This document shows, piece by piece, positions 1-27,656 of a stretch of DNA of 64,000 bases; positions within the stretch are counted from its first letter, which is position 1, and each line of letters begins with the position of its first letter. This DNA comes from Luzula sylvatica (taxonomy: Eukaryota > Streptophyta > Magnoliopsida > Poales > Juncaceae). The notes beneath the pieces are model-generated. The model was given only the letters and a program-made list of their open reading frames with translations. It made no database searches and was not told where the DNA came from. Made by a program: the position numbers and the translations under genes. The DNA is taken from positions 51,218,784-51,282,783 of the forward strand of contig OX326959.1 in NCBI GenBank assembly GCA_946800325.1, written 5' to 3'.

Positions 1-2916
1 TAAAGTCTAACCCCTTCAAAAAAAGTCAATTATCATATTTTCATAAAAATGTGAAAATTGAAGTGTAACACGGATAAAATACTCAATTTTTATGTTCTCT
101 TGAAAATAATCCGTAATAGAAGACTAACACACCCAAATTTCAAAATTTTCAGAAAAATTCTTGAAAATGCAAAAAGTGAAGTCTAACACCTTCAAAAATA
201 GTCAATTATCATATTTTCTTAAAAAAAATTTAATTGTTGTGTAACACGAGCCAAATACTAAATTTTTTATATTTTCATGAAAATACTCTGGAATAGAAGA
301 CTAACACACACAAAGTGAAGTCTAACTCCTTAAAAAAAGTGAATTATTATTTTTTCTTCAAAATGTCTTAATTGAAGTGTAACACGAGCAAAATACTCAA
401 TTTTTATGTTGTCTTGAAAATACCTCGTAATAGAAGACTAACACACACCAATTTCAATTTTTTATAAAATTTGTTGTAAATGCAAAAATTGAAGTCTAAC
501 ACCTTAAAAAAAAATCAATTATCATAATTTCGTAAAAATGTTAAAATTGAAGTGTAAGACGGATGAAATACTCAATTTTTATGTTGTCTTGAAAATACTC
601 CGTAATAGAAGACTAACATACAAAATTTTCAAAATTTTCAGAAAAATTCTTGAAAATGCAAAAAGTGAAGTCTAACACCTTAAAAAAAATTCAATTATCA
701 TATATTCATAAAAAATTTAGAATTGTAGTGTAACACGAGCTAAATACTGAATTGTTTATGTTTTCGTGAAAATACTCCGTAATAGAAGACTAACACACAC
801 AAATTTCAAAAATTTCAAAAAATTTCTTGAAAATGCCAAAAGTGAAGTTTAACACCTGAAAAAAAAGTGAATTATTATTTTTTCTTCAAAATGTCTTAAT
901 TGAAGTATAACACGAGCAAAATACTCAATTTTCATGTTGTCTTGAAAATACTCCGTAATAGAAGACTAACACACACCAATTTCAATTTTTTAAAAAAATT
1001 GTCGAAAATGCAAAAATTGAAGTCTAACCGATTCAAAAAAAGTCAATTATCATATTTTCGTAAAAATGTTAAAATTGAAGTGTAACACGGATAATATACT
1101 CAATTTTTATGTTGTCTTGAAAATACTCCGTAATAGAAGACTAACACACACAAATTTCAAAATTTTCATAAAATTTTTTGAAAATGCAAAAAGTGAAGTC
1201 TAACACCTTAAAAAAAAAGTCAATTATCATATACTCTTAAAAAAATTTTAATTGTTGTGTAACACGAGCTAAATACTCAATTTTTTATGTTTTTTTGTGA
1301 AAATAATCCGTAATAGGAGACTAACACACACAAATTTCAAAAATTTGAAGAAATTTCATGAAAATGCCAAAAGTGAAGTCTAACACCTTAAAAAAAAGTG
1401 AATTATTATTTTTTCTTCAAAATGTCTTAATTGAAGTATAACACGAGCAAAATACTCAATTTTTATGTTGTCTTGAAAATACTCCGTAATAGAAGACTAA
1501 CACACACCAATTTCAATTTTTAAAAAAATTTGTCGAAAATGCAAAAATTGAAGTCTAACCCCTTCAAAAAAAGTCTATTATCATATTTTCGTAAAAATGT
1601 TAAAATTGAAGTGTAACACGGATAAAATACTCAATTTTTATGTTGTCTTGAAAATACTTCGTAATATAAGACTAACACACACAAATTGCAAAATTTTAAG
1701 AAAAATTCATGAAAATGCAAAAAGTGAAGTCTAACACCTTAAAAAAAAGTTAATTGTTATTTTTTCCTAAAATGTCTTAATTGAAGTGTAACACGAGCAA
1801 AATACTCAATTTTTATGTTGTCATGAAAATACTCCGTAATAGAAGACTAACACACACCGTTTTCAATTTTTTTAAAAATTTGTCGAAAATGCAAAAATTG
1901 AAGTCTAACACCTTAAAAAAAGTGGTGTAACACGGATAAAATACTCAATTTTTATGTTGTCTTGAAAATACTCCATAATAGAAGATTAACACACACAAAT
2001 TTCAAAATTTTAAGAAAAATTCTTCAAGATGCAAAATGTGAAGTCTAACACCTTCAAAAATAGTCAATTATCATATTTTCTTAAAAAATTTTGAATGGTT
2101 GTGTAACACGAGCTAAATACTAAATTTTTTATGTTTTCGTGAAAATACTCCGTAATAGAAGACACACACACACAAATTTCAAAAAATTACAAAAATTTCT
2201 TGAAAATGCCAAAAGTGAAGTCTCACCTTAAAAAAAGTGAATTGTTATTTTTTCTTCAAAATGTCTTAATTGAAGTATAACACGAGAAAAATACTCAATT
2301 TTTATGTTGTCTTGAAAATACTACGTAATAGAAGACTAACACACACCAATTACAATTTTTTAAAAAATTTGTTGAAAATTCAAAAATTGAAGTCTGACCC
2401 GTTCAAAAAAAGTCAATTATCATAATTTTGTAAAAATGTTAAAATTGAAGTGTAACACGGATAAAATACTCAATTTGTATGTTGTCTTGAAAATACTCCG
2501 TAATAGAAGACTAACACACACAAATTTCAAAATTTTAAGAACAATTCTTGAAAATGCAAAATGTGATGTCAAACACCTTCAAAAAATGTCAATAATCATA
2601 TTTTCTAAAAAAAAATTTAATTGTCGTGTAACACGAGCTAAATGCTAAATTTTTTATGTTTTCGTGAAAATACTCCGTAATAGAAGACTAACACACACGA
2701 ATTTCAAAAAATTTACAAACTTTCTTGAAAATGTCAAAAGTGAAGTCTAACACCTTAAAAATATGTGAATTATTATTTTTTTCTTCAAAATGTCTTAATT
2801 GAAGTGTAACACGAGCAAAATACTCAATTTTTCTGTTGTTTTGAAAATACTACGTAATAGAAGACTAACACACACCAATTTCAATTTTTTAAAAAATTTG
2901 TTGAAAGTGCAAAAAT
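1..2916. repeat. HOR copy 1 (17 monomers)
   Basis: The sequence at position 1 recurs at 2917, 5835, 8749, 9590, 12493, 15409, 16463 and 19380. This copy is 2,916 bp and has 17 monomers. The C monomer at 241 has lost 38 bp after its ACACACACAAA. The A monomer at 1788 has lost about 36 bp before the next GTGTAACACGG. A C monomer is missing between 1613 and 1788. Confidence 0.93.
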
Positions 2917-5834
2917 TAAAGTCTAACCCCTTCAAAAAAAGTCAATTATCATATTTTCATAAAAATGTGAAAATTGAAGTGTAACACGGATAAAATACTC
3001 AATTTTTATGTTCTCTTGAAAATAATCCGTAATAGAAGACTAACACACCCAAATTTCAAAATTTTCAGAAAAATTCTTGAAAATGCAAAAAGTGAAGTCT
3101 AACACCTTCAAAAATAGTCAATTATCATATTTTCTTAAAAAAAATTTAATTGTTGTGTAACACGAGCCAAATACTAAATTTTTTATATTTTCATGAAAAT
3201 ACTCTGGAATAGAAGACTAACACACACAAAGTGAAGTCTAACTCCTTAAAAAAAGTGGATTATTATTTTTTCTTCAAAATGTCTTAATTGAAGTGTAACA
3301 CGAGCAAAATACTCAATTTTTATGTTGTCTTGAAAATACCTCGTAATAGAAGACTAACACACACCAATTTCAATTTTTTATAAAATTTGTTGTAAATGCA
3401 AAAATTGAAGTCTAACACCTTAAAAAAAAATCAATTATCATAATTTCGTAAAAATGTTAAAATTGAAGTGTAAGACGGATGAAATACTCAATTTTTATGT
3501 TGTCTTGAAAATACTCCGTAATAGAAGACTAACATACAAAATTTTCAAAATTTTCAGAAAAATTCTTGAAAATGCAAAAAGTGAAGTCTAACACCTTAAA
3601 AAAAATTCAATTATCATATATTCATAAAAAATTTAGAATTGTAGTGTAACACGAGCTAAATACTCAATTGTTTATGTTTTCGTGAAAATACTCCGTAATA
3701 GAAGACTAACACACACAAATTTCAAAAATTTCAAAAAATTTCTTGAAAATGCCAAAAGTGAAGTTTAACACCTGAAAAAAAAGTGAATTATTATTTTTTC
3801 TTCAAAATGTCTTAATTGAAGTATAACACGAGCAAAATACTCAATTTTCATGTTGTCTTGAAAATACTCCGTAATAGAAGACTAACACACACCAATTTCA
3901 ATTTTTTAAAAAAATTGTCGAAAATGCAAAAATTGAAGTCTAACCGATTCAAAAAAAGTCAATTATCATATTTTCGTAAAAATGTTAAAATTGAAGTGTA
4001 ACACGGATAATATACTCAATTTTTATGTTGTCTTGAAAATACTCCGTAATAGAAGACTAACACACACAAATTTCAAAATTTTCATAAAAATTTTTGAAAA
4101 TGCAAAAAGTGAAGTCTAACACCTTAAAAAAAAAGTCAATTATCATATACTCTTAAAAAAAATTTTATTGTTGTGTAACACTAGCTAAATACTCAATTTT
4201 TTATGTTTTTTTGTGAAAATAATCCGTAATAGGAGACTAACACACACAAATTTCAAAAATTTGAAGAAATTTCATGAAAATGCCAAAAGTGAAGTCTAAC
4301 ACCTTAAAAAAAAGTGAATTATTATTTTTTCTTCAAAATGTCTTAATTGAAGTATAACACGAGCAAAATACTCAATTTTTATGTTGTCTTGAAAATACTC
4401 CGTAATAGAAGACTAACACACACCAATTTCAATTTTTAAAAAAATTTGTCGAAAATGCTAAAATTGAAGTCTAACCCCTTCAAAAAAAAGTCTATTATCA
4501 TATTTTCGTAAAAATGTTAAAATTGAAGTGTAACACGGATAAAATACTCAATTTTTATGTTGTCTTGAAAATACTCCGTAATATAAGACTAACACACACA
4601 AATTGCAAAATTTTAAGAAAAATTCTTGAAAATGCAAAAAGTGAAGTCTAACACATTAAAAAAAAGTTAATTGTTATTTTTTCTTCAAAATGTCTTAATT
4701 GAAGTGTAACACGAGCAAAATACTCAATTTTTATGTTGTCATGAAAATACTCCGTAATAGAAGACTAACACACACCGTTTTCAATTTTTTAAAAAATTTG
4801 TCGAAAATGCAAAAATTGAAGTCTAACACCTTAAAAAAAGTGGTGTAACACGGATAAAATACTCAATTTTTATGTTGTCTTGAAAATACTCCATAATAGA
4901 AGATTAACACACACAAATTTCAAAATTTTAAGAAAAATTCTTGAAAATGCAAAATGTGAAGTCTAACACCTTCAAAAAAAGTCAATTATCATATTTTCTT
5001 AAAAAATTTTGAATTGTTGTGTAACACGAGCTAAATACTAAATTTTTTATGTTTTCGTGAAAATACTCCGTAATAGAAGACACACACACACAAATTTCAA
5101 AAAATTTCAAAAATTTCTTGGAAATGCCAAAAGTGAAGTCTCACCTTAAAAAAAGTGAATTGTTATTTTTTCTTCAAAATGTCTTAATTGAAGTATAACA
5201 CGAGAAAAATACTCAATTTTTATGTTGTCTTGAAAATACTACGTAATAGAAGACTAACACACACCAATTACAATTTTTTAAAAAATTTGTTGAAAATGCA
5301 AAAATTGAAGTCTGACCCGTTCAAAAAAAGTCAATTATCATAATTTTGTAAAAATGTTAAAATTGAAGTGTAACACGGATTAAATACTCAATTTGTATGT
5401 TGTCTTGAAAATACTCCGTAATAGAAGACTAACACACAGAAATTTCAAAATTTTAAGAACAATTCTTGAAAATGCAAAATGTGATGTCAAACACCTTCAA
5501 AAAATGTCAATAATCATATTTTCTAAAAAAAATTTTAATTGTCGTGTAACACGAGCTAAATGCTAAATTTTTTATGTTTTCGTGAAAATACTCCGTAATA
5601 GAAGACTAACACACACGAATTTCAAAAAATTTAAAAACTTTCTTGAAAATGCCAAAAGTGAAGTCTAACACCTTAAAAATATGTGAATTATTATTTTTTT
5701 CTTCAAAATGTCTTAATTGAAGTGTAACACGAGCAAAATACTCAATTTTTCTGTTGTTTTGAAAATACTACGTAATAGAAGACTAACACACACCAATTTC
5801 AATTTTTTAAAAAATTTGTTGAAAATGCAAAAAT
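2917..5834. repeat. HOR copy 2
   Basis: This copy is 2,918 bp. It matches copy 1 along its length with scattered substitutions and 1-2 bp homopolymer changes. The same two shortened monomers and the same missing C are present. Confidence 0.93.
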
Positions 5835-8748
5835 TAAAGTCTAACCCCTTCAAAAAAAGTCAATTATCATATTTTCATAAAAATGTGAAAATTGAAGTGT
5901 AACACGGATAAAATACTCAATTTTTATGTTCTCTTGAAAATAATCCGTAATAGAAGACTAACACACCGAAATTTCAAAATTTTCAGAAAAATTCTTGAAA
6001 ATGCAAAAAGTGAAGTCTAACACCTTCAAAAATAGTCAATTATCATATTTTCTTAAAAAAAATTTAATTGTTGTGTAACACGAGCCAAATACTAAATTTT
6101 TTATATTTTCGTGAAAATACTCCGGAGTAGAAGACTAACACACACAAAGTGAAGTCTAACTCCTTAAAAAAAGTGAATTATTATTTTTTCTTCAAAATGT
6201 CTTAATTGAAGTGTAACACGAGCAAAATACTCAATTTTTATGTTGTCTTGAAAATACCTCGTAATAGAAGACTAACACACACCAATTTCAATTTTTTATA
6301 AAATTTGTTGTAAATGCAAAAATTGAAGTCTAACACCTTCAAAAAAAATCAATTATCATAATTTCGTAAAAATGTGAAAATTGAAGTGTAAGACGAATGA
6401 AATACTCAATTTTTATGTTGTCTTCAAAATACTCCGTAATAGAAGACTAACACACAAAATTTTCAAAATTTTCAGAAAAATTCTTGAAAATGCAAAAAGT
6501 CAAGTCTAACACCTTAAAAAAAGGTCAATTATCATATATTCATAAAAAATTTAGAATTGTAGTGTAACACGAGCTAAATACTCAATTGTTTATGTTTTCG
6601 TGAAAATACTCCGTAATAGAAGACTAACACACACAAATTTCAAAAATTTCAAAAAATTTCTTGAAAATGCCAAAAGTGAAGTTTAACACCTTAAAAAAAA
6701 GTGAATTATTATTTTTTCTTCAAAATGTCTTAATTGAAGTATAACACGAGCAAAATACTCAATTTTCATGTTGTCTTGAAAATACTCCGTAATAGAAGAC
6801 TAACACACACCAATTTCAATTTTTTAAAAAAATTGTCGAAAATGCAAAAATTGAAGTCTAACCGATTCAAAAAAAGTCAATTATCATATTTTCATAAAAA
6901 TGTTAAAATTGAAGTGTAACACGGATAATATACTCAATTTTTATGTTGTCTTGAAAATACTCCGTAATAGAAGACTAACACACACAAATTTCAAAATTTT
7001 CATAAAAATTTTTGAAAATGCAAAAAGTGAAGTCTAACACCTTCAAAAAAAAGTCAATTATCATATAATCTTAAAAAAGTTTTAATTGTTGTGTAACACG
7101 AGCTAAATACTCAATTTTTTATGTTTTTTGTGAAAATAATCCGTAATAGGAGACTAACACACACAAATTTCAAAAATTTCAAGAAATTTCATGAAAATGC
7201 CAAAAGTGAAGTCTAACACCTTAAAAAAAGTGAATTATTATTTTTTCTTCAAAATGTCTTAATTGAAGTATAACACGAGCAAAATACTCAATTTTTATGT
7301 TGTCTTGAAAATACTCCGTAATAGAAGACTAACACACACCAATTTCAATTTTTAAAAAAATTTGTCGAAAATGCAAAAATTGAAGTCTAACCCTTTCAAA
7401 AAAAGTCTATTATCATATTTTCGTAAAAATGTTAAAATTGAAGTGTAACATGGATAAAATACTCAATTTTTATGTTGTCTTGAAAATACTCCGTAATATA
7501 AGACTAACACACACAAATTGCAAAATTTTAAGAAAAATTCTTGAAAATGCAAAAAGTGAAGTCTAACACCTTAAAAAAAGTTAATTGTTATTTTTTCTTC
7601 AAAATGTCTTAATTGAAGTGTAACACGAGCAAAATACTCAATTTTTATGTTGTCATGAAAATACTCCGTAATAGAAGACTAACACACAACGTTTTCAATT
7701 TTTTAAAAAATTTGTCGAAAATGCAAAAATTGAAGTCTAACACCTTAAAAAAAGTGGTGTAACACGGATAAAATACTCAATTTTTATGTTGTCTTGAAAA
7801 TACTCCGTAATAGAAGATTAACACACACAAATTTCAAAATTTTAAGAAAAATTCTTGAAAATGCAAAATGTGAAGTCTAACACCTTCAAAAATAGTCAAT
7901 TATCATATTTTCTTAAAAAATTTTGAATGGTTGTGTAACACGAGCTAAATAACAAATTTTTTATGTTTTCGTGAAAATACTCCGTAATAGAAGACACACA
8001 CACACAAATTTCAAAAAATTTCAAAAATTTCTTGGAAATGCCAAAAGTGAAGTCTCACCTTAAAAAAAGTGAATTGTTATGTTTTCTTCAAAATGTCTTA
8101 ATTGAAGTATAACACGAGAAAAATACTCCATTTTTATGTTGTCTTGAAAATACTACGTAATAGAAGACTAACACACACCAATTACAATTTTTTAAAAAAT
8201 TAGTTGAAAATGCAAAAATTGAAGTCTCACCGGTTCAAAAAAAGTCAATTATCATAATTTTGTAAAAATATTAAAATTGAAGTGTAACACGGATAAAATA
8301 CTCAATTTGTATGTTGTCTTGAAAATACTCCGTAATAGAAGACTAACACAAACAAATTTCAAAATTTTAAGAACAATTCTTGAAAATGCAAAAAGTGATG
8401 TCAAACACCTTCAAAAAATGTCAATAATCATATTTTCTAAAAAAAATTTTAATTGTCGTGTAACACGAGCTAAATGCTAAATTTTTTATGTTTTCGTGAA
8501 AATACTCCGTAATAGAAGACTAACACACACGAATTTCAAAAAATTTAAAAACTTTCTTGAAAATGCCAAATGTGAAGTCTAACACCTTAAAAATTTGTGA
8601 ATTATTATTTTTTTCTTCAAAATGTCTTAATTGAAGTGTAACACGAGCAAAATACTCAATTTTTCTGTTGTTTTGAAAATACTACGTAATAGAAGACTAA
8701 CACACACCAATTTCAATTTTTTAAAAAATTTGTTGAAAATGCAAAAAT
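5835..8748. repeat. HOR copy 3
   Basis: This copy is 2,914 bp and has the same monomer order as copies 1 and 2. It shares small variants with copies 4 and 5, for example ACACACCGAAATTTC near 5964, 8877 and 9718, and CCGGAGTAGAAG near 6122, 9037 and 9878. The right-hand copies are therefore closer relatives of each other. Confidence 0.92.
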
Positions 8749-9589
8749 TAAAGTCTAACCCCTTCAAAAAAAGTCAATTATCATATTTTCATAAAAATGT
8801 GAAAATTGAAGTGTAACACGGATAAAATACTCAATTTTTATGTTCTCTTGAAAATAATCCGTAATAGAAGACTAACACACCGAAATTTCAAAATTTTCAG
8901 AAAAATTCTTGAAAATGCAAAAAGTGAAGTCTAACACCTTCAAAAATAGTCAATTATCATATTTTCTTAAAAAAAATTTAATTGTTGTGTAACACGAGCC
9001 AAATACTAAATTTTTTATATTTTCGTGAAAATACTCCGGAGTAGAAGACTAACACACACAAAGTGAAGTCTAACTCCTTAAAAAAAGTGAATTATTATTT
9101 TTTCTTCAAAATGTCTTAATTGAAGTGTAACACGAGCAAAATACTCAATTTTTATGTTGTCTTGAAAATACCTCGTAATAGAAGACTAACACACACCAAT
9201 TTCAATTTTTTATAAAATTTGTTGTAAATGCAAAAATTGAAGTCTAACACCTTCAAAAAAAATCAATTATCATAATTTCGTAAAAATGTGAAAATTGAAG
9301 TGTAAGACGGATGAAATACTCAATTTTTATGTTTTCGTGAAAATACTCCGTAATAGAAGACTAACACACACGAATTTCAAAAAATTTAAAAACTTTCTTG
9401 AAAATGCCAAAAGTGAAGTCTAACACCTTAAAAATATGTGAATTATTATTTTTTTCTTCAAAATGTCTTAATTGAAGTGTAACACGAGCAAAATACTCAA
9501 TTTTTCTGTTGTTTTGAAAATACTACGTAATAGAAGACTAACACACACCAATTTCAATTTTTTAAAAAATTTGTTGAAAATGCAAAAAT
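8749..9589. repeat. HOR copy 4, internally deleted (841 bp)
   Basis: The copy follows the normal order to the B monomer with GTAAGACGGATGAAATAC (about 9302). At about 9325-9340 it then jumps to the late C monomer, recognised by GTTTTCGTGAAAATACTCC followed by ACACACGAATTTC. About 2.07 kb, or roughly 12 monomers, are missing. Because the join is in register inside homologous monomers, unequal exchange between non-equivalent monomers explains it well. Confidence 0.88.
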
Positions 9590-12492
9590 TAAAGTCTAAC
9601 CCCTTCAAAAAAAGTCAATTATCATATTTTCATAAAAATGTGAAAATTGAAGTGTAACACGGATAAAATACTCAATTTTTATATTCTCTTGAAAATAATC
9701 CGTAATAGAAGACTAACACACCGAAATTTCAAAATTTTCAGAAAAATTCTTGAAAATGCAAAAAGTGAAGTCTAACACCTTCAAAAATAGTCAATTATCA
9801 TATTTTCTTAAAAAAAATTTAATTGTTGTGTAACACGAGCCAAATACTAAATTTTTTATATTTTCGTGAAAATACTCCGGAGTAGAAGACTAACACACAC
9901 AAAGTGAAGTCTAACTCCTTAAAAAAAGTGAATTATTATTTTTTCTTCAAAATGTCTTAATTGAAGTGTAACACGAGCAAAATACTCAATTTTTATGTTG
10001 TCTTGAAAATACCTCGTAATAGAAGACTAACACACACCAATTTCAATTTTTTATAAAATTTGTTGTAAATGCAAAAATTGAAGTCTAACACCTTCAAAAA
10101 AAATCAATTATCATAATTTCGTAAAAATGTGAAAATTGAAGTGTAAGACGGATGAAATACTCAATTTTTATGTTGTCTTGAAAATACTCCGTAATAGAAG
10201 ACTAACACACAAAATTTTCAAAATTTTCAGAAAAATTCTTGAAAATGCAAAAAGTCAAGTCTAACACCTTAAAAAAAGGTCAATTATCATATATTCATAA
10301 AAAATTTAGAATTGTAGTGTAACACGAGCTAAATACTCAATTGTTTATGTTTTCGTGAAAATACTCCGTAATAGAAGACTAACACACACAAATTTCAAAA
10401 ATTTCAAAAAATTTCTTGAAAATGCCAAAAGTGAAGTTTAACACCTTAAAAAAAAGTGAATTATTATTTTTTCTTCAAAATGTCTTAATTGAAGTATAAC
10501 ACGAGCAAAATACTCAATTTTCATGTTGTCTTGAAAATACTCCGTAATAGAAGACTAACACACACCAATTTCAATTTTTTAAAAAAATTGTCGAAAATGC
10601 AAAAATTGAAGTCTAACCGATTCAAAAAAAGTCAATTATCATATTTTCATAAAAATGTTAAAATTGAAGTGTAACACGGATAATATACTCAATTTTTATG
10701 TTGTCTTGAAAATACTCCGTAATAGAAGACTAACACACACAAATTTCAAAATTTTCATAAAAATTTTTGAAAATGCAAAAAGTGAAGTCTAACACCTTCA
10801 AAAAAAAGTCAATTATCATATAATCTTAAAAAAGTTTTAATTGTTGTGTAACACGAGCTAAATACTCAATTTTTTATGTTTTTTGTGAAAATAGTCCGTA
10901 ATAGGAGACTAACACACACAAATTTCAAAAATTTCAAGAAATTTCATGAAAATGCCAAAAGTGAAGTCTAACACCTTAAAAAAAGTGAATTATTATTTTT
11001 TCTTCAAAATGTCTTAATTGAAGTATAACACGAGCAAAATACTCAATTTTTATGTTGTCTTGAAAATACTCCGTAATAGAAGACTAACACACACCAATTT
11101 CAATTTTTAAAAAAATTTGTCGAAAATTGAAAAATTGAAGTCTAACCCTTTCAAAAAAAGTCTATTATCATATTTTCGTAAAAATGTTAAAATTGAAGTG
11201 TAACATGGATAAAATACTCAATTTTTATGTTGTCTTGAAAATACTCCATAATATAAGACTAACACACACAAATTGCAAAATTTTAAGAAAAATTCTTGAA
11301 AATGCAAAAAGTGAAGTCTAACACCTTAAAAAAAGTTAATTGTTATTTTTTCTTCAAAATGTCTTAATTGAAGTGTAACACGAGCAAAATACTCAATTTT
11401 TATGTTGTCATGAAAATACTCCGTAATAGAAGACTAACACACACCGTTTTCAATTTTTTAAAAAATTTGTCGAAAATGCAAAAATTGAAGTCTAACACCT
11501 TAAAAAAAGTGGTGTAACACGGATAAAATACTCAATTTTTATGTTGTCTTGAAAATACTCCGTAATAGAAGATTAACACACACAAATTTCAAAATTTTAA
11601 GAAAAATTCTTGAAAATGCAAAATGTGAAGTCTAACACCTTCAAAAATAGTCAATTATCATATTTTCTTAAAAAATTTTGAATGGTTGTGTAACACGAGC
11701 TAAATAACAAATTTTTTATGTTTTCGTGAAAATACTCCGTAATAGAAGACACACACACACAAATTTCAAAAATTTCTTGGAAATGCCAAAAGTGAAGTCT
11801 CACCTTAAAAAAAGTGAATTGTTATTTTTTCTTCAAAATGTCTTAATTGAAGTATAACACGAGAAAAATACTCCATTTTTATGTTGTCTTGAAAATACTA
11901 CGTAATAGAAGACTAACACACACCAATTACAATTTTTTAAAAAATTAGTTGAAAATGCAAAAATTGAAGTCTAACCCGTTCAAAAAAAGTCAATTATCAT
12001 AATTTTGTAAAAATGTTAAAATTGAAGTGTAACACGGATAAAATACTCAATTTGTATGTTGTCTTGAAAATACTCCGTAATAGAAGACTAACACAAACAA
12101 ATTTCAAAATTTTAAGAACAATTCTTGAAAATGCAAAAAGTGATGTCAAACACCTTCAAAAAATGTCAATAATCATATTTTCTAAAAAACATTTTAATTG
12201 TCGTGTAACACGAGCTAAATGCTAAATTTTTTATGTTTTCGTGAAAATACTCCGTAATAGAAGACTAACACACACGAATTTCAAAAAATTTAAAAACTTT
12301 CTTGAAAATGCCAAAAGTGAAGTCTAACACCTTAAAAATATGTGAATTATTATTTTTTCTTCAAAATGTCTTAATTGAAGTGTAACACGAGCAAAATACT
12401 CAATTTTTCTGTTGTTTTGAAAATACTACGTAATAGAAGACTAACACACACCAATTTCAATTTTTTAAAAAATTTGTTGAAAATGCAAAAAT
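9590..12492. repeat. HOR copy 5
   Basis: This copy is 2,903 bp with the standard monomer order. It is slightly shorter than the others because of small deletions, for example near 11761, where the AAATTTCAAAAAATTTC stretch of a C monomer is shortened. Confidence 0.92.
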
Positions 12493-15408
12493 TAAAGTCT
12501 AACCCCTTCAAAAAAAGTCAATTATCATATTTTCATAAAAATGTGAAAATTGAAGTGTAACACGGATAAAATACTCAATTTTTATGTTCTCTTGAAAATA
12601 ATCCGTAATAGAAGACTAACACACACAAATTTCAAAATTTTCAGAAAAATTCTTGAAAATTCAAAAAGTGAAGTCTAACACCTTCAAAAATAGTCAATTA
12701 TCATATTTTCTTAAAAAAAATTTAATTGTTGTGTAACACGAGCCAAATACTAAACTTTTTATATTTTCGTGAAAATACTCCGGAATAGAAGACTAACACA
12801 CACAAAGTGAAGTCTAACTCCTTAAAAAAAGTGAATTATTATTTTTTCTTCAAAATGTCTTAATTGAAGTGTAACACGAGCAAAATACTCAATTTTTATG
12901 TTGTCTTGAAAATACCTCGTAATAGAAGACTAACACACACCAATTTCAATTTTTTATAAAATTTGTTGTAAATGCAAAAATTGAAGTCTAACACCTTCAA
13001 AAAAAATCAATTATCATAATTTCGTAAAAATGTTAAAATTGAAGTGTAAGACGGATGAAATACTCAATTTTTATGTTGTCTTGAAAATACTCCGTAATAG
13101 AAGACTAACACACAAAATTTTCAAAATTTTCAGAAAAATTCTTGAAAATGCAAAAAGTGAAGTCTAACACCTTAAAAAAAAGTCAATTATCATATATTCA
13201 TAAAAAATTTAGAATTGTAGTGTAACACGAGCTAAATACTCAATTGTTTATGTTTTCGTGAAAATACTCCGTAATAGAAGACTAACACACACAAATTTCA
13301 AAAATTTCAAAAAATTTCTTGAAAATGCCAAAAGTGAAGTTTAACACCTTAAAAAAAAGTGAATTATTATTTTTTCTTCAAAATGTCTTAATTGAAGTAT
13401 AACACGAGCAAAATACTCAATTTTCATGTTGTCTTGAAAATACTCCGTAATAGAAGACTAACACACACCAATTTCAATTTTTTAAAAAAATTGTCGAAAA
13501 TGCAAAAATTGAAGTCTAACCGATTCAAAAAAAGTCAATTATCATATTTTCGTAAAAATGTTAAAATTGAAGTGTAACACGGATAATATACTCAATTTTT
13601 ATGTTGTCTTGAAAATACTCCGTAATAGAAGACTAACACACACAAATTTCAAAATTTTCATAAAAATTTTTGAAAATGCAAAGAGTGAAGTCTAACACCT
13701 TCAAAAAAAAGTCAATTATCATATACTCTTAAAAAAGTTTTAATTGTTGTGTAACACGAGCTAAATACTCAATTTTTTATGTTTTTTGTGAAAATAATCC
13801 GTAATAGGAGACTAACACACACAAATTTCAAAAATTTCAAGAAATTTCATGAAAATGCCAAAAGTGAAGTCTAACACCTTAAAAAAAAGTGAATTATTAT
13901 TTTTTCTTCAAAATGTCTTAATTGAAGTATAACACGAGCAAAATACTCAATTTTTATGTTGTCTCGAAAATACTCCGTAATAGAAGACTAACACACACCA
14001 ATTTCAATTTTTAAAAAAATTTGTCGAAAATGCAAAAATTGAAGTCTAACCCCTTCAAAAAAAGTCTATTATCATATTTTCGTAAAAATGTTAAAATTGA
14101 AGTGTAACACGGATAAAATACTCAATTTTTATGTTGTCTTGAAAATACTCCGTAATATAAGACTAACACACACAAATTGCAAAATTTGAAGAAAAATTCT
14201 TGAAAATGCAAAAAGTGAAGTCTAACACCTTAAAAAAAAGTTAATTGTTATTTTTTCTTCAAAATGTCTTAATTGAAGTGTAACACGAGCAAAATACTCA
14301 ATTTTTATGTTGTCATGAAAATACTCCGTAATAGAAGACTAACACACACCGTTTTCAATTTTTTAAAAAATTTGTCGAAAATGCAAAAATTGAAGTCTAA
14401 CACCTTAAAAAAAGTGGTGTAACACGGATAAAATACTCAATTTTTATGTTGTCTTGAAAATACTCCATAATAGAAGATTAACACACACAAATTTCAAAAT
14501 TTTAAGAAAAATTCTTGAAAATGCAAAATGTGAAGTCTAACACCTTCAAAAATAGTCAATTATCATATTTTCTTAAAAAATTTTGAATTGTTGTGTAACA
14601 CGAGCTAAATACTAAATTTTTTATGTTTTCGTGAAAATACTCCGTAATAGAAGACACACACACACAAATTTCAAAAAATTTCAAAAATTTCTTGGAAATG
14701 CCAAAAGTGAAGTCTCACCTTAAAAAAAGTGAATTGTTATTTTTTCTTCAAAATGTCTTAATTGAAGTATAACACGAGAAAAATACTCAATTTTTATGTT
14801 GTCTTGAAAATACTACGTAATAGAAGACTAACACACACCAATTACAATTTTTTAAAAAATTTGTTGAAAATGCAAAAATTGAAGTCTGACCCGTTCAAAA
14901 AAAGTCAATTATCATAATTTTGTAAAAATGTTAAAATTGAAGTGTAACACGGATTAAATACTCAATTTGTATGTTGTCTTGAAAATACTCCGTAATAGAA
15001 GACTAACACACACAAATTTCAAAATTTTAAGAACAATTCTTGAAAATGCAAAATGTGATGTCAAACACCTTCAAAAAATGTCAATAATCATATTTTCTAA
15101 AAAAAATTTTAATTGTCGTGTAACACGAGCTAAATGCTAAATTTTTTATGTTTTCGTGAAAATACTCCGTAATAGAAGACTAACACACACGAATTTCAAA
15201 AAATTTAAAAACTTTCTTGAAAATGCCAAAAGTGAAGTCTAACACCTTAAAAATATGTGAATTATTATTTTTTTCTTCAAAATGTCTTAATTGAAGTGTA
15301 ACACGAGCAAAATACTCAATTTTTCTGTTGTTTTGAAAATACTACGTAATAGAAGACTAACACACACCAATTTCAATTTTTTAAAAAATTTGTTGAAAAT
15401 GCAATAAT
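12493..15408. repeat. HOR copy 6
   Basis: This copy is 2,916 bp with the standard order. It is the last copy to carry the derived AAAGTGGTGTAAC form of the shortened A/B junction (14408-14425). Copies further right carry AAAGTGAAGTGTAAC. Confidence 0.92.
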
Positions 15409-16462
15409 TAAAGTCTAACCCCTTCAAAAAAAGTCAATTATCATATTTTCATAAAAATGTGAAAATTGAAGTGTAACACGGATAAAATACTCAATTTTTA
15501 TGTTCTCTTGAAAATAATCCGTAATAGAAGACTAACACACCGAAATTTCAAAATTTTCAGAAAAATTCTTGAAAATGCAAAAAGTGAAGTCTAACACCTT
15601 CAAAAATAGTCAATTATCATATTTTCTTAAAAAAATTTGAATGGTTGTGTAACACGAGCTAAATACTAAATTTTTTATGTTTTCGTGAAAATACTCCGTA
15701 ATAGAAGACACACACACACAAATTTCAAAAAATTTCAAAAATTTCTTGGAAATGCCAAAAGTGAAGCCTCACCTTAAAAAAAGTGAATTGTTATTTTTTC
15801 TTCAAAATGTCTTAATTGAAGTATAACACGAGAAAAATACTCAATTTTTATATTGTCTTGAAAATACTACGTAATAGAAGACTAACACACACCAATTACA
15901 ATTTTTTAAAAAATTTGTTGAAAATGCAAAAATTGAAGTCTAACCCGTTCAAAAAAAGTCAATTATCATAATTTTGTAAAAATGTTAAAATTGAAGTGTA
16001 ACACGGATAAAATACTCAATTTGTATATTGTCTTGAAAATACTCCGTAATAGAAGACTAACACACACAAATTTCAAAATTTTAAGAACAATTCTTGAAAA
16101 TGCAAAAAGTGATGTCAAACACCTTCAAAAAATGTCAATAATCATATTTTCTAAAAAAAATTTTAATTGTCGTGTAACACGAGCTAAATGCTAAATTTTT
16201 TATGTTTTCGTGAAAATACTCCGTAATAGAAGACTAACACACACGAATTTCAAAAAATTTAAAAACTTTCTTGAAAATACCAAAAGTGAAGTCTAACACC
16301 TTAAAAATATGTGAATTATTATTTTTTTCTTCAAAATGTCTTAATTGAAGTGTAACACGAGCAAAATACTCAATTTTTCTGTTGTTTTGAAAATACTACG
16401 TAATAGAAGACTAACACACACCAATTTCAATTTTTTAAAAAATTTGTTGAAAATGCAAAAAT
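15409..16462. repeat. HOR copy 7, internally deleted (1,054 bp)
   Basis: The first B monomer passes at about 15630-15645 directly into the late C monomer recognised by GAATGGTTGTGTAACACGAGCT. About 1.86 kb is missing. The join again falls inside a homologous stretch (TTTTCTTAAAAAA), in register, as expected for unequal recombination. Confidence 0.88.
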
Positions 16463-19379
16463 TAAAGTCTAACCCCTTCAAAAAAAGTCAATTATCATAT
16501 TTTCATAAAAATGTGAAAATTGAAGTGTAACACGGATAAAATACTCAATTTTTATGTTCTCTTGAAAATAATCCGTAATAGAAGACTAAGACACACAAAT
16601 TTCAAAATTTTCAGAAAAATTCTTGAAAATGCAAAAAGTGAAGTCTAACACCTTCAAAAATAGTCAATTATCATATTTTCTTAAAAAAAATTTAATTGTT
16701 GTGTAACACGAGCCAAATACTAAATTTTTTATATTTTCGTGAAAATACTCCGGAATAGAAGACTAACACACACAAAGTAAAGTCTAACTCCTTAAAAAAA
16801 GTGAATTATTATTTTTTCTTCAAAATGTCTTGATTGAAGTGTAACACGAGCAAAATACTCAATTTTTATGTTGTCTTGAAAATACCTCGTAATAGAAGAC
16901 TAACACACACCAATTTCAATTTTTTATAAAATTTGTTGTAAATGCAAAAATTGAAGTCTAACACCTTCAAAAAAAGTCAATTATCATAATTTCGTAAAAA
17001 TGTTAAAATTGAAGTGTAAGACGGATGAAATACTCATTTTTTATGTTGTCTTGAAAATACTCCGTAATAGAAGACTAACACACAAAATTTTCAAAATTTT
17101 CAGAAAAATTCTTGAAAATGCAAAAAGTGAAGTCTAACACCTTAAAAAAAAGTCAATTATCATATATTCTTAAAAAATTTAGAATTGTAGTGTAACACGA
17201 GCTAAATACTCAATTGTTTATGTTTTCGTGAAAACACTCCGTAATAGAAGACTAATACACACAAAATTCAAAAATTTCAAAAAATTTCTTGAAAATGCCA
17301 AAAGTGAAGTTTAACACCTTAAAAAAAAGTGAATTATTATTTTTTCTTCAAAATGTATTAATTGAAGTATAACACGAGCAAAATACTCAATTTTCATGTT
17401 GTCTTGAAAATACTCCGTAATAGAAGACTAACACACACCAATTTCAATTTTTTTAAAAATTTGTCGAAAATGCAAAAATTGAAGTCTAACCGATTCAAAA
17501 AGAGTCAATTATCATATTTTCGTAAAAATGTTAAAATTGAAGTGTAACACGGATACTATAATAAATTTTTATGTTGTCTTGAAAATACTCCGTAATAGAA
17601 GACTAACACACACAAATTTCAAAATTTTCATAAAAATTCTTGAAAATGCAAAAAGTGAAGTCTAACACCTTCAAAAAAAAGTCAATTATCATATACTCTT
17701 AAAAAAATTTTAATTGTTGTGTAACACGAGCTAAATACTCAATTTTTTATGTTTTTTGTGAAAATACTCCGTAATAGGAGACTAACACACACAAATTTCA
17801 AAAATTTCATGAAATTTCATGAAAATGCCAAAAGTGAAGTCTAACACCTTAAAAAAAAGTGAATTATTATTTTTTCTTCAAAATGTCTTAATTGAAGTAT
17901 AACACGAGCAAAATACTCAATTTTTATGTTGTCTTGAAAATACTCCGTAATAGAAGACTAACACACACCAATTTCAATTTTTTAAAAAATTTGTCGAAAA
18001 TGCAAAAATTGAAGTCTAACCCCTTCAAAAAAAGTGTATTATCATATTTTCGTAAAAATGTTAAAATTGAAGTGTAACACGGATAAAATACTCAATTTTT
18101 ATGTTGTCTTGAAAATACTCCGTAATATAAGACTAACACACACAAATTGCAAAATTTTAAGAAAAATTCTTGAAAATGCAAAAAGTGAAGTCTAACACCT
18201 TAAAAAAAAGTTAATTGTTATTTTTTCTTCAAAATGTCTTAATTGAAGTGTAACACGAGCAAAATACTCAATTTTTAAGTTGTCATGAAAATACTCCGTA
18301 ATAGAAGACTAACACACACCGATTTCAATTTTTTAAAAAAAATTTCGAAAATGCAAAAATTGAAGTCTAACACCTTAAAAAAAGTGAAGTGTAACACGGT
18401 TAAAATACTCAATTTTTATGTTGTCTTGAAAATACTCCGTAATAGAAGACTAACACACACTAATTTCAAAATTTTAAGAAAAATTCTTGAAAATGCAAAA
18501 AGTGAAGTCTAACACCTTCAAAAATAGTCAATTATCATATATTCTTAAAAAATTTTGAATGGTTGTGTAACACGAGCTAAATACTAAATTTTTTATGTTT
18601 TCGTGAAAATACTCCTTAATAGAAGACACACACACACAAATTTCAAAAAATTTCAAAAATTTCTAGGAAATGCCAAAAGTGAAGTCTCACCTTAAAAAAA
18701 GTGAATTGTTATTTTTTCTTCAAAATGTTTTAATTGAAGTATAACACGAGAAAAATACTCAATTTTTATGTTGTCTTGAAAATACTACGTAATAGAAGAC
18801 TAACACACACCAATTACAATTTTTTTAAAAATTTGTTGAAAATGCAAAAATTGAAGTCTAACCCGTTCAAAAAAAGTCAATTATCATAATTTTGTAAAAA
18901 TGTTAAAATTGAAGTGTAACACGGATAAAGTACTCAATTTGTATGTTGTCTTGAAAATACTCCGTAATAGAAGACTAACACACACAAATTTCAAAATTTT
19001 AAGAACAATTCTTGAAAATGCAAAAAGTGATGTCAAACACCTTCAAAAAATGTCAATAATCATATTTTCTAAAAAAAAATTTAATTGTCGTGTAACACGA
19101 GCTAAATGCTAAATTTTTTATGTTTTCGTGAAAATACTCCGTAATAGAAGACTAACACACACGAATTTCAAAAAATTTAAAAACTTTCTTGAAAATGCCA
19201 AAAGTGAAGTCTAACACATTAAAAATAAGTGAATTATTATTTTTTCTTCAAAATGTCTTAATTGAAGTGTAACACGTGCAAAATACTCAATTTTTATGTT
19301 GTCTTGAAAATACTACGTAATAGAAGACTAACACACACCAATTTCAATTTTTTAAAAAATTTGTTGAAATTGCAAAAAT
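16463..19379. repeat. HOR copy 8
   Basis: This copy is 2,917 bp with the standard order but more private substitutions than copies 1-6. At 18376-18400 it carries AAAGTGAAGTGTAACACGG, two bases longer than copies 1, 2, 3, 5 and 6. Confidence 0.9.
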
Positions 19380-20870
19380 TAAAGTCTAACCCCTTCAAAA
19401 AAAAGTCAATTATCATATTTTCATAAAAATGTGAAAATTGAGGTGTAACACGGATAAAATACTCAATTTTTATGTTCTCTTGAAAATAATCCGTAATAGA
19501 AGACTAACACACACAAATTTCAAAATTTTCAGAAAAATTCTTGAAAATGCAAAAAGTGAAGTCTAACACCTTCAAAAATAGTCAATTATCATATTTTCTT
19601 AAAAAAAATTTAATTGTTGTGTAACACGAGCCAAATACTAAATTTTTTATATTTTCGTGAAAATACTCCGGAATAGAAGACTAACACACACAAAGTGAAG
19701 TCTAACTCCTTAAAAAAAGTGAATTATTATTTTTTTTCTTCAAAATGTCTTAATTGAAGTGAAACACGAGCAAAATACTCAATTTTTATGTTGTCTTGAA
19801 AATACCTCATAATAGAAGACTAACACACACCAATTTCAATTTTTTATAAAATTTGTTGTAAATGCAAAAATTGAAGTCTAACACCTTCAAAAAAAGTCAA
19901 TTATCATAATTTCGTAAAAATGTTAAAATTGAAGTGTAAGACGGATGAAATACTCAATTTTTATGTTGTCTTGAAAATACTCCGTAATGGAAGACTAACA
20001 CACAAAATTTTCAAAATTTTCAGAAAAATTCTTGAAAATGCAAAAAGTGAAGTCTAACACCTTAAAAAAAAGTCAATTATCATATATTCTTAAAAAATTT
20101 AGAATTGTAGTGTAACACGAGCTAAATACTCAATTGTTTATGTTTTCGTGAAAATACTCCGTAATAGAAGACTAACACACACAAATTTCAAAAATTTCAA
20201 AAAATATCTTGAAAATACCAAAAGTGAAGTTTAACACCTTAAAAAAAAGTGAATTATTATTTTTTCTTCAAAATGTCTTAATTGAAGTATAACACGAGCA
20301 AAATACTCAATTTTCATGTTGTCTTGAAAATACTCCGTAATAGAAGACTAGCACACACCAATTTCAATTTTTAAAAAAATTTGTCGAAAATGCAAAAATT
20401 GAAGTCTAACCCCTTAAAAAAAAGTCAATTATCATATTTTCGTAAAAATGTTAAAATTGAAGTGTAACACGGATAAAATACTCAATTTTTATGTTGTCTT
20501 GAAAATACTCCGTAATATAAGACTAACACACACAAATTGCAAAATTTTAAGAAAAATTCTTGAAAATGCAAAAAGTGAAGTCTAACACCTTAAAAAAAAG
20601 TTAATTGTTATTTTTTCTTCAAAATGTCTTAATTGAAGTGTAACACGAGCAAAAGACTCAATTTTTATGTTGTCATGAAAATACTCCGTAATAGAAGACT
20701 AACACACACCGATTTCAAATTTTTAAAAAATTTGTAGAAAATGCAAAAATTGAAGTCTAACACCTTAAAAAAAGTGAAGTGTAACACGGATAAAATACTC
20801 AATTTTTATGTTGTCTTGAAAATACTCCATAATAGAAGACAAACACACACAAATTTCAAAATGTTCAGAA
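19380..20870. repeat. HOR copy 9, lacking one B-C-A trimer, leading into the array edge
   Basis: This copy follows the HOR order to the A monomer with CTCAATTTTCATG (about 20307). It then joins directly to the B monomer with CCGTAATATAAGAC (about 20514). The B, C and A monomers found in between in other copies, about 530 bp or one trimer, are missing. The boundary with the edge region is approximate. Confidence 0.8.
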
Positions 20871-23800
20871 AAATTCTTGAAAATGCAAAAGTTGAAGTCT
20901 AACACCTTCAAAAAAAGTCAATTATCATATTTTCTTAAAAAAAATTGAATTGTTGTGTAACACGAGCTAAATACTCAATTTTTTTATGTTTTTTGTGAAA
21001 ATACTCCGTAATAGAAGACTAACACACACAAATTTCAAAAAATTCAAAAAATTTCTTCAAAATGCTAAAAGTGAAGTCTAACGACTTAAAAAAGAGTTAA
21101 TTGTTATTTTTTCTTCAGAATGTCTTAATTGAAGTGTAACACGAGCAAAATACTCAATTTTTATGTTGTCTTGAAAATACTCCGTAAAAGAAGACTAACA
21201 CACACCAATTTCAATTTTTTTTAAAATTTGTCAAAAATGCAAAAATTGAAGTCTAATCCCTTCAAAAAAAGTCAATTATCATATTTTCGTAAAAATGTTA
21301 AAATTGAAGTGTAACACGGATAAAATACTCAATTTTTATGTTGTCTTGAAAATACTCCGTAATATAAGACTAACACACACAAATTGCCAAATTTTCAGAA
21401 AAATTCTTGAAAATGCAAAAAGTGAAGTCTAACACCTTAAAAAAAAGGCAATTGTTATTTTTTCTTCAAAATGTCTTAATTGAAGTGTAACACGAGCAAA
21501 ATACTCAATTTTTATGTTGTCATGAAAATACTCCGTAATAGAACGCTAACACACACCGATTTCAAATTTTTAAAAAATTTGTCGGAAATGCAAAAATTGA
21601 AGTCTAACCTTAAAAAAAGTGAAGTGTAACACGGATAAAATACTCAATTTTTATGTTGTCTTGAAAATACTCCGTAATAGAAGACAAATGCACACTAATT
21701 TCAAAATGTTCGGAAAAATTCTTGAAAATGCAAAAATTGAAGTCTACCTTCAAAAAAAGTCAATTATCATATTTTCTTAAAAATAATTGAATTGTTGTGT
21801 AACACGAGCTAAATACTCAATTTTTTTATGTTTTTTGTGAAAATACTCCGTAATAGAAGACTAACACACACAAATTTCAAAAAATTCAAAACTTTTCTTC
21901 AAAATGCCAAATGTAAAGTCTAACAACTTAAAAAAAAGTTAATTGTTATTTTTTCTTCAGAATGTCTTAATTGAAGTGTAACACGAGCAAAATACTCAAT
22001 TTTTATGTTGTCTTGAAAATACTCCGTAATAGAAGACTAACACACACCAATTTTAATTTTATTGAAAATTTCACGAAAATGCAAAAATTGAAGTCTAACA
22101 CCTTAAAAAAAAGTAAATTATCATATTTTCATAAAAATGCTAAAATTGAAGTGTAACACGGATAAAATACTCAATTTTTATGTTGTCTTGAAAATACTCC
22201 GTAATAGAAGACTAACACACACAAATTTCAAAGTTTTCAGAAAAATTCTTGAAAATGCAAAAAATGAAGTCTAACACCTTCAAAAATAGTCAATTATCAT
22301 ATTTTCTTAAAAAAATTTGACTTGTTGTGTAACACGAGCTAAATACTAATTTTTTTATGTTTTCGTGAAAATACTCCGTAATAGAAGACTAACACACACA
22401 AATTTAAAAAAATTTAAAAACTTTCTTGAAAATGCCAAAAGTGAAGTCTAACACCTTAAAAAAAGTGAATTATTATTTTTTCTTCAAAATGTCTTAATTG
22501 AAGTGTAACACGAGCAAAATACTCACTTTTTATGTTGTTTTGAAAATATTCCGAAATAGAAGACTAACACACACCAATTTCAATTTTTTAAAAAATTTGT
22601 TGTAAATGCAAAAGTTGAAGTCTAACACCTTCAAAAAAAGTCAATGATCATAATTTCGTAAAAATGTTAAAATTGAAGTGTAGCACGGATAAAATACTCA
22701 ATTTTTATGTTGGCTTGAAAATACTCCGTAATAGAAGACTAACACACAAAATTTTCAAAATTTTCAGAAAAAATCTTCAAAATGCAAAAAGTGAAGTCTA
22801 ACACCTTCAAAAAAAGTCAATTATCATATATTCTTAAAAAATTTAGAATTGTAGTGTAACACGAGCTAAATACTCAATTGTTTATGTTTTCGTGAAAATA
22901 CTCCGTAATAGAAGACTAACTCAAACAAATTTCAAAAATTTCAAAAACTTTCTTGAAAATGCCAAATGTGAAGTCTAACACCTTAAAAAAAGTGAATTAT
23001 TATTTTTTCTTCAAAATGTCTTAATTGAAGTATAACACGAGCAAACTACTCAATTTTCATGTTGTCTTGAAAATACTCCGTAATAGAAGACTAACACACA
23101 CCAATTTAAATTTTTTCGAAAATTTGTCGAAAATGCAAAAATTGAAGTCTAACCCATTCAAAAAACGTCAATTATCATATTTTGGTAAAAATGTTAAAAT
23201 TGAAGTGTAACACGGACAATATACTCAATTTTTATGTTGTCTTGAAAATACTCCGTGATAGAAGACATGCACACACAAATTTCAAAATTTTTAGTAAAAA
23301 TTCTTGAAAATGCAAAAAGTGAAGTCTCACCTTCAAAAAAAGTCAATTATCATATTTTCTTAAAAAAATTTGAATTGTTGTGTAACACGAGCTAAATACT
23401 CAATTTTTTATGTTTTTTGTGAAAATACTCCGTAATTGAAAACTAACACACACAAATTTTAAAAAATTCAAAAAATTTCATCAAAATGCCAAAAGTGAAG
23501 TCTAACACCTTAAAAAAAAGTGAATTATTATTTTTTCTTCAAAATGTCTTAATTGAAGTGTAACACGAGAAAAATACTCAATTTTTATGTTGTCTTGAAA
23601 ATACTCCGTAATAGAAGACTAACACACACCAATTTAAATTTTTTCGAAAATTTCTCGAAAATGCAAAAATTGAAGTCTAACACCTTAAAAAAAAGTCAAT
23701 TATCATATTTTCATAAAAATGTTAAAATTGAAGTGTAACACGGATAAAATACTCAATTTTTATGTTGACTTGAAATTACTCCGTAATAGAAGGCCAACAC

Positions 23801-24385
23801 ACACAAATTTCAATGTTTCCAGAAAAATTCTTGAAAATGCAAAAAGTGAAGTCTAACACCTTAAAAAATAGTTAATTATCATATTTTCATACAAAATTTT
23901 GAATTGTTGTGTGACATGAGCTAAATACTAATTTTTTTATGTTTTCGTGAAAATACTCCGTAATAGAAGGCTAACACACACAAATTTCAAAAAATTTCAA
24001 AACTTTCTTGAAAATGCCAAAAGTGAAGTCTAACACCTTAAAAAAAAGTGAATTATTATTTTTTCTACGAAATGTCTTAATTGAAGTGTAACACGAGCAA
24101 AATACTCAATTTTTATGTTGTCTTCAAAATACTCCGTAATAGAAGACTAACATACACCAATTTCATTTTTTTTTTCAATTTGTTGAAAATGCAAAAATTG
24201 AAGTCTAACACCTTCAAAAAAAGTCAATTATCATAATTTCGTAAAAATGTTAAAATTGAAGTGTAAGACGGATAAAATACTCAATTTTTATGTTGTCTTG
24301 AAAATACTCCGTAATAGAAGACTAACACATACAAATTTCAAAATTTTCAGAAAAATTCTTGAAAATGCAAAAAGTGAAGTCTAAC
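20871..24385. repeat. Diverged trimeric satellite at the array edge
   Basis: Monomers of types A, B and C still alternate. The 17-mer order fades, and point differences and small indels rise towards 24385, for example AGAACGCTAAC near 21541, GACATGAGC near 23911 and AGAAGGCCAAC near 23790. A second B-A-shortened B block (about 21311-21630) shows that HOR pieces were also reshuffled here. This is the usual look of an array margin outside the zone of homogenisation. Confidence 0.85.
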
Positions 24386-24396
24386 TATTTCTTTCA
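24386..24396 (-). mobile_element. 11-bp LTR tip remnant at the satellite/retroelement junction
   Basis: Satellite sequence stops after GAAGTCTAAC. The bases TATTTCTTTCA that follow equal the terminal bases of the LTR copies ending at 29510 and 44428. The sequence from 24397 on equals that from 29511. The array therefore ends inside a minus-strand copia LTR of which only the tip remains. Confidence 0.75.
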
Positions 24397-27385: not shown

Positions 27386-27643
27386 CCCACTGAAAATTTT
27401 CTGCAGATTTTGCCGTTTCTTCCGTTTTCGCTCGTTTCTGAAACGATAAATCATGAAACCTTTTCACGATAATTCCTAGATACTCTCAATCAACTTTTGA
27501 TTGATCTCTAGTGAATTCTACTTGTAATTTTTAACGAAATTGGAATCTCTATATCTATCATCATGCAAACGGGTACGAACTTTGATAACCCGTGCGTATA
27601 TCCAATATACGACAATGATTCGACCCTCGAATCGATGGCGATC
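27386..27643 (-). mobile_element. Leader region of the left copia derivative
   Basis: This sequence lies between the primer-binding site and the decayed internal region on the minus strand. The part with TTTTCTGCAGATTTT to CTCTAGTGA (27395-27513) recurs at 31321-31439. The part with CATGCAAACGGGTAC (27561 on) recurs at 42204 on. No coding capacity is evident. Confidence 0.6.
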
Positions 27644-27655
27644 GCTCTGATACCA
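27644..27655 (-). promoter_or_regulatory. Primer-binding site (initiator tRNA-Met type)
   Basis: The minus strand reads TGGTATCAGAGC, the usual plant initiator-Met primer-binding site. It sits one base downstream of the LTR end (…CCCTACA). It fixes the element as minus-strand, with its 5' LTR at 27657-28733. Confidence 0.9.
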
Positions 27656-27656
27656 A

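What the first reader, a model, noticed from the sequence alone, without database searches (positions are those of the whole stretch)
1..24385. Four-level nested satellite: 59 bp, 176 bp, 528 bp and 2,917 bp
The 176-bp monomer is itself three ~59-bp sub-repeats with a shared head GAAGnnTAACAC (60, 119, 178, 236). Three monomer types A, B and C form a 528-bp trimer. Seventeen monomers (BCA BCA BCA BA BCA BCA) form a 2,917-bp HOR. Each level is roughly a tripling of the one below, followed by a larger irregular unit. Plant HORs with this much readable internal history are uncommon, and the monomer length is nucleosomal.
Basis: seen in the sequence. Interest (0 to 1): 0.85.

Follow-up and report, generated by a model that had tools for sequence, protein, structure and literature searches.

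The report
Nested satellite DNA in a rush-family plant
A stretch of plant DNA, probably from the rush family, is built of repeats inside repeats inside repeats (59, 176, 528 and about 2,916 bases); it is a well-preserved example of a known kind of satellite DNA, and it may, though this is untested, belong to a centromere.

Summary
Window 1-24,385 is a head-to-tail satellite array of 141 complete monomers. Autocorrelation near 59, 176, 528 and 2,917 exceeds all 100 simulations. Monomers form three types (50/50/41) in the stated cyclic order, with six complete 17-mers of 2,903-2,918 bp at 97.6-99.5% identity. Additions: the HOR "A" beside the missing C is a C/A hybrid monomer (8 of 8 copies), so the "BA" step looks like a scar of an unequal exchange; two monomers are truncated; HOR deletion/duplication variants occur; the edge holds a diverged relic of HOR positions 0-8 without truncation or hybrid (22,201-23,782; 0 of 2000 permutations). 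The plant looks like a cyperid, probably Juncaceae, a family whose genus Luzula is holocentric with 174/175-bp Lusy2 arrays (PMC11538461). Lusy2 membership and CENH3 binding could not be tested, and the own genome could not be searched. HORs with truncated monomers are known in plants (PMC4053949): a new, unusually readable member of a known kind.

The parts
1..24385 (+). Satellite array, all monomers in one orientation; open at the left end of the window
   Evidence: TRF and anchor decomposition; nhmmer on 24001-64000, both strands, E<=10, gave 3 hits, all ending by 24387
113..3028 (+). HOR copy 1, 2,916 bp, 17 monomers (C a* B C A B C A B [C/A] b* C A B C A B; a*, b* truncated)
3029..5946 (+). 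HOR copy 2, 2,918 bp, 99.1% to copy 1
5947..8860 (+). HOR copy 3, 2,914 bp
8861..9701 (+). 841-bp deletion variant of the HOR: positions 0,1,2 joined to 15,16; its third monomer (9175) ends in two C-type states, suggesting a B2/C14 junction
9702..12604 (+). HOR copy 4, 2,903 bp, 99.5% to copy 3
12605..15520 (+). HOR copy 5, 2,916 bp
15521..16574 (+). 1,054-bp extra block: six monomers, the last five matching HOR positions 12-16, the first ambiguous
16575..19492 (+). HOR copy 6, 2,918 bp, most diverged (97.6-98.1% to the others)
19493..20828 (+). Incomplete HOR: positions 0,1,2,3,4 joined to 8,9,10 (5-7 absent)
20829..21673 (+). Diverged pentamer C A B [C/A] b*; several of its monomers are 95-97% to monomers five places away on one side or the other
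21674..24385 (+). Edge layer: five CAB trimers of full-length monomers plus a partial monomer; best-neighbour identity about 95%
22201..23782 (+). Within the edge layer: nine monomers that follow HOR positions 0-8 in order at 91-98% to the position consensus; the second is full length and closest to position 15, not to truncated position 1
   Evidence: 0 of 2000 permutations reach the observed diagonal score
290..426 (+). Truncated A monomer (a*, 137 bp), first copy; HOR position 1
1661..1835 (+). C/A hybrid monomer, HOR position 9 (also at 4578, 7493, 11248, 14152, 18122, 20512, 21359)
1836..1974 (+). Truncated B monomer (b*, 139 bp), first copy; HOR position 10
24386..25963 (.). Flank at the abrupt array edge: a repeat 87% to 29500-31048, both copies starting at the same base

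Best explanation
It is the right-hand end of an AT-rich, nucleosome-length satellite array of a cyperid plant, most likely Juncaceae. Shown from sequence: a monomer of three related ~59-bp thirds; three monomer types repeating in order; a 17-mer with two truncated monomers and one C/A hybrid monomer present in six near-identical copies and several variants; and a diverged edge that keeps the type order and a relic of the first nine HOR positions. Inferred: amplification and homogenisation by unequal crossing-over or gene conversion in monomer register. One C x A exchange, one monomer out of register, removed a monomer and left the C/A hybrid, which the larger unit then carried along. The array interior turns over fastest and the edge keeps older material. 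The most likely role is structural, as a substrate for phased nucleosomes (heterochromatin or a CENH3 unit); which of the two cannot be decided from sequence.
For: Levels of identity: same HOR position 98.5%, same type at another position 91.5%, other type 82.8%, thirds 56-68%. Hybrid: each of the 8 position-9 monomers improves by 5 mismatches (13-15 to 8-10) when modelled as C then A, while the other 133 of 141 gain at most 2 (type consensus made without these 8). Left of the switch they are 94.7-96.1% to C and 88.2-89.5% to A, right of it 93.8-95.8% to A and 82.5-83.5% to C (switch columns chosen after the painting). HOR variants are simple deletions or duplications of HOR positions. Mean best-neighbour identity is 98.9-99.8% up to 17.2 kb, 97.9-98.8% to 20.7 kb, 95-96% beyond. 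Edge relic of positions 0-8. AA/TT/TA power at 9.6-10.9 bp in the consensus trimer is 0.109, against means of 0.027 (p=0.002) and 0.033 (p=0.016) for two column-shuffle nulls of 500 each. Taxon: the DUF4220 protein groups with two Juncus effusus proteins at 100/100 in a tree of 25 rows; most organism-named hits in the first 50 rows for the Copia protein are Rhynchospora.
Against: Only one array of one genome was seen; the rest of the genome could not be searched. The B2/C14 junction in the 841-bp variant rests on two sites. The 9.8-bp signal coincides with a harmonic of the 59-bp unit. Crossing-over and gene conversion were not told apart. No CENP-B-box excess (7 sites with 2 mismatches and 72 with 3, against 11.0 and 121.4 expected from 5 simulations; none with 0-1), and no clear dyad-symmetry excess (78 against 55-78 in 5 simulations and 80 in a flank stretch). 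The taxon rests on one host gene and retroelements; the best-scoring Copia hit is an unnamed metagenome protein, and Tanacetum and Centaurea also appear in the first 50 rows.
Confidence: 0.82

Rival explanations
1. It is a CENH3-carrying centromere unit (a holocentromere unit if the plant is a Luzula), of the Lusy2 kind, and the HOR reflects homogenisation tied to kinetochore function.
For: Juncaceae affinity; 175-177 bp monomers against Lusy2 174/175 bp and a 178-bp Luzula repeat 87% similar to Lusy2; functional Lusy2 arrays are more alike than nonfunctional ones (89.6 versus 85.1%) (PMC11538461); nucleosomal length and ~10-bp periodicity.
Against: No sequence comparison with Lusy2 was possible; in L. 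sylvatica 107 of 952 Lusy2 arrays hold CENH3 domains and nonfunctional arrays average 20 kb; Lusy2's two variants share 62%, A/B/C here 83%; the genus is not established.
Confidence: 0.28
2. It is a non-centromeric heterochromatic or subtelomeric satellite of the same genome, amplified without centromere function.
For: The array end lies next to transposable elements and a DUF4220 gene about 7.5 kb away; most Lusy2 arrays lack CENH3, and other L. sylvatica satellites sit near telomeres or irregularly.
Against: The homogeneous HOR (97.6-99.5%) suggests recent turnover, which is common at, though not exclusive to, centromeres (general knowledge).
Confidence: 0.55
3. The HOR is an assembly artefact (duplicated or misjoined reads).
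For: Near-identical tandem units are error-prone in assembly (general knowledge).
Against: The six copies differ by 0.5-2.4% and there are distinct structural variants; divergence rises toward the edge.
Confidence: 0.04

Closest known systems
Human alpha-satellite HOR arrays
   Same: ~171-bp monomers in HORs of many monomers; solitary (one per HOR) hybrid monomers are mentioned for SF2 HORs (PMC4496801, passages); homogeneous core with older layers at the edge (recalled)
   Different: No CENP-B box excess here; a three-type base order; plant; no sequence relation tested or claimed
Switchgrass centromere HORs (175-bp B1 repeat; 792 and 1,131 bp)
   Same: ~175-bp monomers and HORs that include truncated monomers (PMC4053949, passages)
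   Different: Five or seven units per HOR against 17 here; no hybrid monomer or layered edge mentioned in the passages read
Lusy2 / 178-bp repeat of Luzula
   Same: Monomer length; probably the same plant family; many arrays of tens of kb (PMC11538461, passages and Discussion)
   Different: Sequence could not be compared; the main text has no occurrence of 'higher-order'
Tyba of Rhynchospora
   Same: 172-bp satellite in ~20-kb domains along the chromosomes of a cyperid (PMC11538461; PMC10264360)
   Different: The window's DUF4220 protein is closer to Juncus than to Rhynchospora; satellite sequence not compared

Membership tests
Higher-order-repeat satellite array | Multi-monomer unit repeated in tandem with identity between units well above identity between monomers | tested here: met
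   98.5% same position versus 91.5% same type and 82.8% other type; six full copies
Higher-order-repeat satellite array | Head-to-tail single orientation | tested here: met
   142 + strand anchors spaced 137-180 bp without a larger gap
Centromeric satellite | CENH3 nucleosomes on the array | not testable with these tools
   needs ChIP-seq
Centromeric satellite with CENP-B box | CENP-B box motif (consensus recalled, not from a call) | tested here: not met
   no site with 0-1 mismatches, no excess at 2-3
Lusy2 / 178-bp Luzula satellite | Sequence similarity to the published consensus | not testable with these tools
   the paper points to its supplement; 0 supplement look-ups allowed; no repeat sequence in the passages read
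Lusy2 / 178-bp Luzula satellite | Monomer of 174/175 (178) bp | tested here: inconclusive
   111 of 141 monomers are 175-177 bp: near, not equal, and length alone is weak
Juncaceae origin | Host genes group with Juncaceae | tested here: met
   one gene only: window DUF4220 + two J. effusus proteins 100/100 among 25 chosen rows; no other Juncaceae or Thurniaceae species was in the tree
Genus Luzula | Genes closer to Luzula than to other genera | not tested
   no Luzula protein among the 120 listed hits or the 120

The most novel reading that the evidence does not exclude
In a holocentric Luzula-like plant, individual tens-of-kb satellite arrays behave like miniature human centromeres: each has its own recently amplified multi-monomer HOR in the interior, hybrid-monomer scars and older, diverged HOR ancestors at the edge, so that array-by-array homogenisation, not one chromosome-wide process, maintains the holocentromere units.
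Probability: 0.17. Interest if true: 0.62.

Novelty: new member of a known kind. Interest (0 to 1): 0.4.

Why it matters
The array keeps several steps of satellite evolution readable in one 24-kb stretch: related thirds, three monomer types, a hybrid-forming exchange, two fixed truncations, amplification of a 17-mer, later HOR deletions and duplications, and an edge that still shows a diverged ancestor of half the HOR. If the plant is a Luzula, it would let one ask whether holocentromere units are homogenised one by one, as monocentric alpha-satellite arrays are thought to be.

Tried and rejected
CENP-B box and dyad symmetry: no excess. Mosaic origin of A, B and C from shuffled thirds: each pair of types shares one closer third, but the runs test gave p=0.087, so this was dropped. 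My own first reading that the edge holds no trace of the HOR was wrong: the best-position labels and the test show positions 0-8 in order at 22,201-23,782. My first reading that the hybrid is shown to be older than the 17-mer was also weakened: of the 8 copies, 6 lie in complete HORs, one (20512) in the incomplete HOR and only one (21359) in a diverged pentamer that could be an ancestor or a decayed derivative. An LTR-pair reading of 24386-25963 and 29500-31048 was not adopted: the copies (87%) share a left end, no convincing terminal motif was seen, and 24397-24584 resembles DNA at 63448-63637 inside a Copia ORF. The 57939-59600 ORF: none of 7,988 scored candidates reached E<=0.001. Literature probes with three window-derived words and their reverse complements (13-15 bases) found 0 papers. 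Exact 22-base pattern: 0 matches in genome contigs (prokaryotes) and viral contigs; one HOR copy had no megablast match in plasmids; these say little about a plant satellite. No claim is made that HORs in Luzula are absent from print; what was looked at is the main text of one paper by word ('higher-order' 0 times; 'hor' 2 times, not shown) and the search listings.

Limits of the counts: the anchor threshold was 5 or fewer mismatches; partial monomers at both array ends are outside the 141; truncated monomers, and the position-9 monomers, were left out of the type consensus.

Full report
What is there. Window 1-24,385 is a head-to-tail, AT-rich (25.3% GC against 38.6% in the flank) satellite array, open at the window's left end and ending abruptly at 24,385. 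An anchor scan gave 142 anchors and 141 complete monomers; 111 of 141 are 175-177 bp. A monomer profile run on 24,001-64,000 found 3 hits, all ending by 24,387.

The four levels. Autocorrelation at lags 58/59, 117/118, 175/176, 352, 528 and 2,916/2,918 is 0.406-0.493, against a mean of about 0.317 and a highest value of 0.327 in 100 first-order Markov sequences. The thirds of the monomer are related: 56-68% identity against 46-53% for shuffles; in 8 of 9 comparisons 0-1 of 1000 shuffles reach the score, in one 32 of 1000. The quoted head is exact at 60, 119 and 178 but reads GTTG at 236. Six complete 17-mers measure 2,903-2,918 bp and share 97.6-99.5%.

(1) The A at HOR position 9, which follows B without C between them, is a hybrid: C-like on the left (94.7-96.1% to C, 88.2-89.5% to A) and A-like on the right (93.8-95.8% to A, 82.5-83.5% to C), in 8 of 8 copies; each gains 5 mismatches from a two-type mosaic and no other monomer of the 133 gains more than 2. 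The 'BA dimer' is therefore best read as the product of an exchange one monomer out of register. (2) Two monomers are truncated and recur at fixed places: position 1 (A, 137 bp) and position 10 (B, 139 bp). By eye the breakpoints show short shared words (AAA; AAGTG), which is a reading and the consensus, not a test. (3) Variants of the HOR: 841 bp (positions 0-2 joined to 15-16), 1,054 bp (an extra six monomers), and one unit lacking positions 5-7. The junction monomer of the 841-bp block carries two C-type states at its end. (4) Layers: no complete 17-mer lies beyond 19,492. A diverged pentamer with the hybrid and a truncated B stands at 20,829-21,673, and five CAB trimers of full-length monomers follow to the edge. 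Mean best-neighbour identity falls from about 99% in the interior to 95-96%. Within those trimers, nine monomers at 22,201-23,782 follow HOR positions 0-8 in order (seven of them, positions 2-8, as best match within type), which none of 2000 permutations reached; their second monomer is full length and closest to position 15, and no hybrid follows the ninth. A simple history that fits is: thirds, three types, an ancestral nine-monomer block, then hybrid and truncations, amplification of the 17-mer, and local HOR changes. This order is inference; the hybrid's age relative to the 17-mer rests on one copy outside HOR-related blocks (21,359).

Where it comes from. The clearest gene, a DUF4220 protein at 31,908-33,836 minus, has Juncus effusus as best hit (43% over 98%), and in a tree of 25 rows chosen from the hits it groups with two J. 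effusus proteins at 100/100, outside both. For the Copia polyprotein, most organism-named hits among the first 50 rows are Rhynchospora, with one Juncus, one Tanacetum and one Centaurea; the top row is an unnamed metagenome protein. So the plant is a cyperid, probably Juncaceae. The genus is not shown. Luzula is a guess because it is a Juncaceae genus with ~175-bp satellites.

How it works. The sequence shows amplification and homogenisation in monomer register; unequal crossing-over explains hybrid and variants most simply, and gene conversion cannot be excluded. A 9.8-bp AA/TT/TA rhythm, stronger than in column-shuffled controls (p=0.002 and 0.016, 500 each), and the 176-bp length would suit phased nucleosomes. 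Whether those carry CENH3 is open. In L. sylvatica, CENH3 lies mainly on Lusy1 and partly on Lusy2; 107 of 952 Lusy2 arrays contain CENH3 domains, with mean sizes of 94 kb (functional) and 20 kb (nonfunctional) (PMC11538461: outline, passages and the Discussion read). An array of at least 24 kb cannot be placed by size. CENP-B boxes and dyad symmetries are not in excess.

Known or new. HORs are widespread: 76 of 171 species with Sanger data, and switchgrass HORs contain truncated monomers (PMC4053949, passages). Solitary hybrid monomers in HORs are mentioned for human alpha satellite (PMC4496801, passages). A HOR cluster is named in the holocentric Chionographis (PMC10264360, passages). The main text of the Luzula paper has no occurrence of 'higher-order'. 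Juncus repeats of 155, 181 and 364 bases with higher- and lower-order repeats are reported (PMC9526063, passages). The array is thus a new member of a known kind, with an unusually legible history.

Change after checking. The count of monomers of 173-180 bp was corrected to 124 of 141, the edge relic was added, and the claim that the hybrid predates the 17-mer was weakened.

Noticed in passing
window 46236-51332 (+), repeats 45991-46173 and 51227-51411: Uninterrupted 1,698-aa Copia polyprotein ORF flanked by ~185-bp direct repeats at 98.4%, which look like short LTRs of a recent insertion.
   Followed up: partly
window 24386-25963 and 29500-31048: 87% direct repeat whose two copies begin at the same base, one of them exactly at the satellite edge; 24397-24584 resembles DNA at 63448-63637, inside a Copia ORF.
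   Followed up: partly
window 27657-28733 and 43048-44124: 96.5% duplicated block about 15 kb apart, part of a family of related repeats in 25984-29510 and 42172-44428.
   Followed up: no
window 57595-57790 and 60575-60859: Small tandem arrays (75-bp and 117-bp units) rich in GTTCGAAC-like palindromes.
   Followed up: no
window 57939-59600 (+): 553-aa ORF with a sub-threshold Pfam match to a putative plant transposon protein (37.8 bits, cut-off 45) and no homologue at E<=0.001 among 7,988 scored candidates.
   Followed up: partly
window 31908-33836 (-): DUF4220 gene in one uninterrupted ORF, sister to two Juncus effusus proteins, with a TC run (33840-33880) directly before its start.
   Followed up: yes
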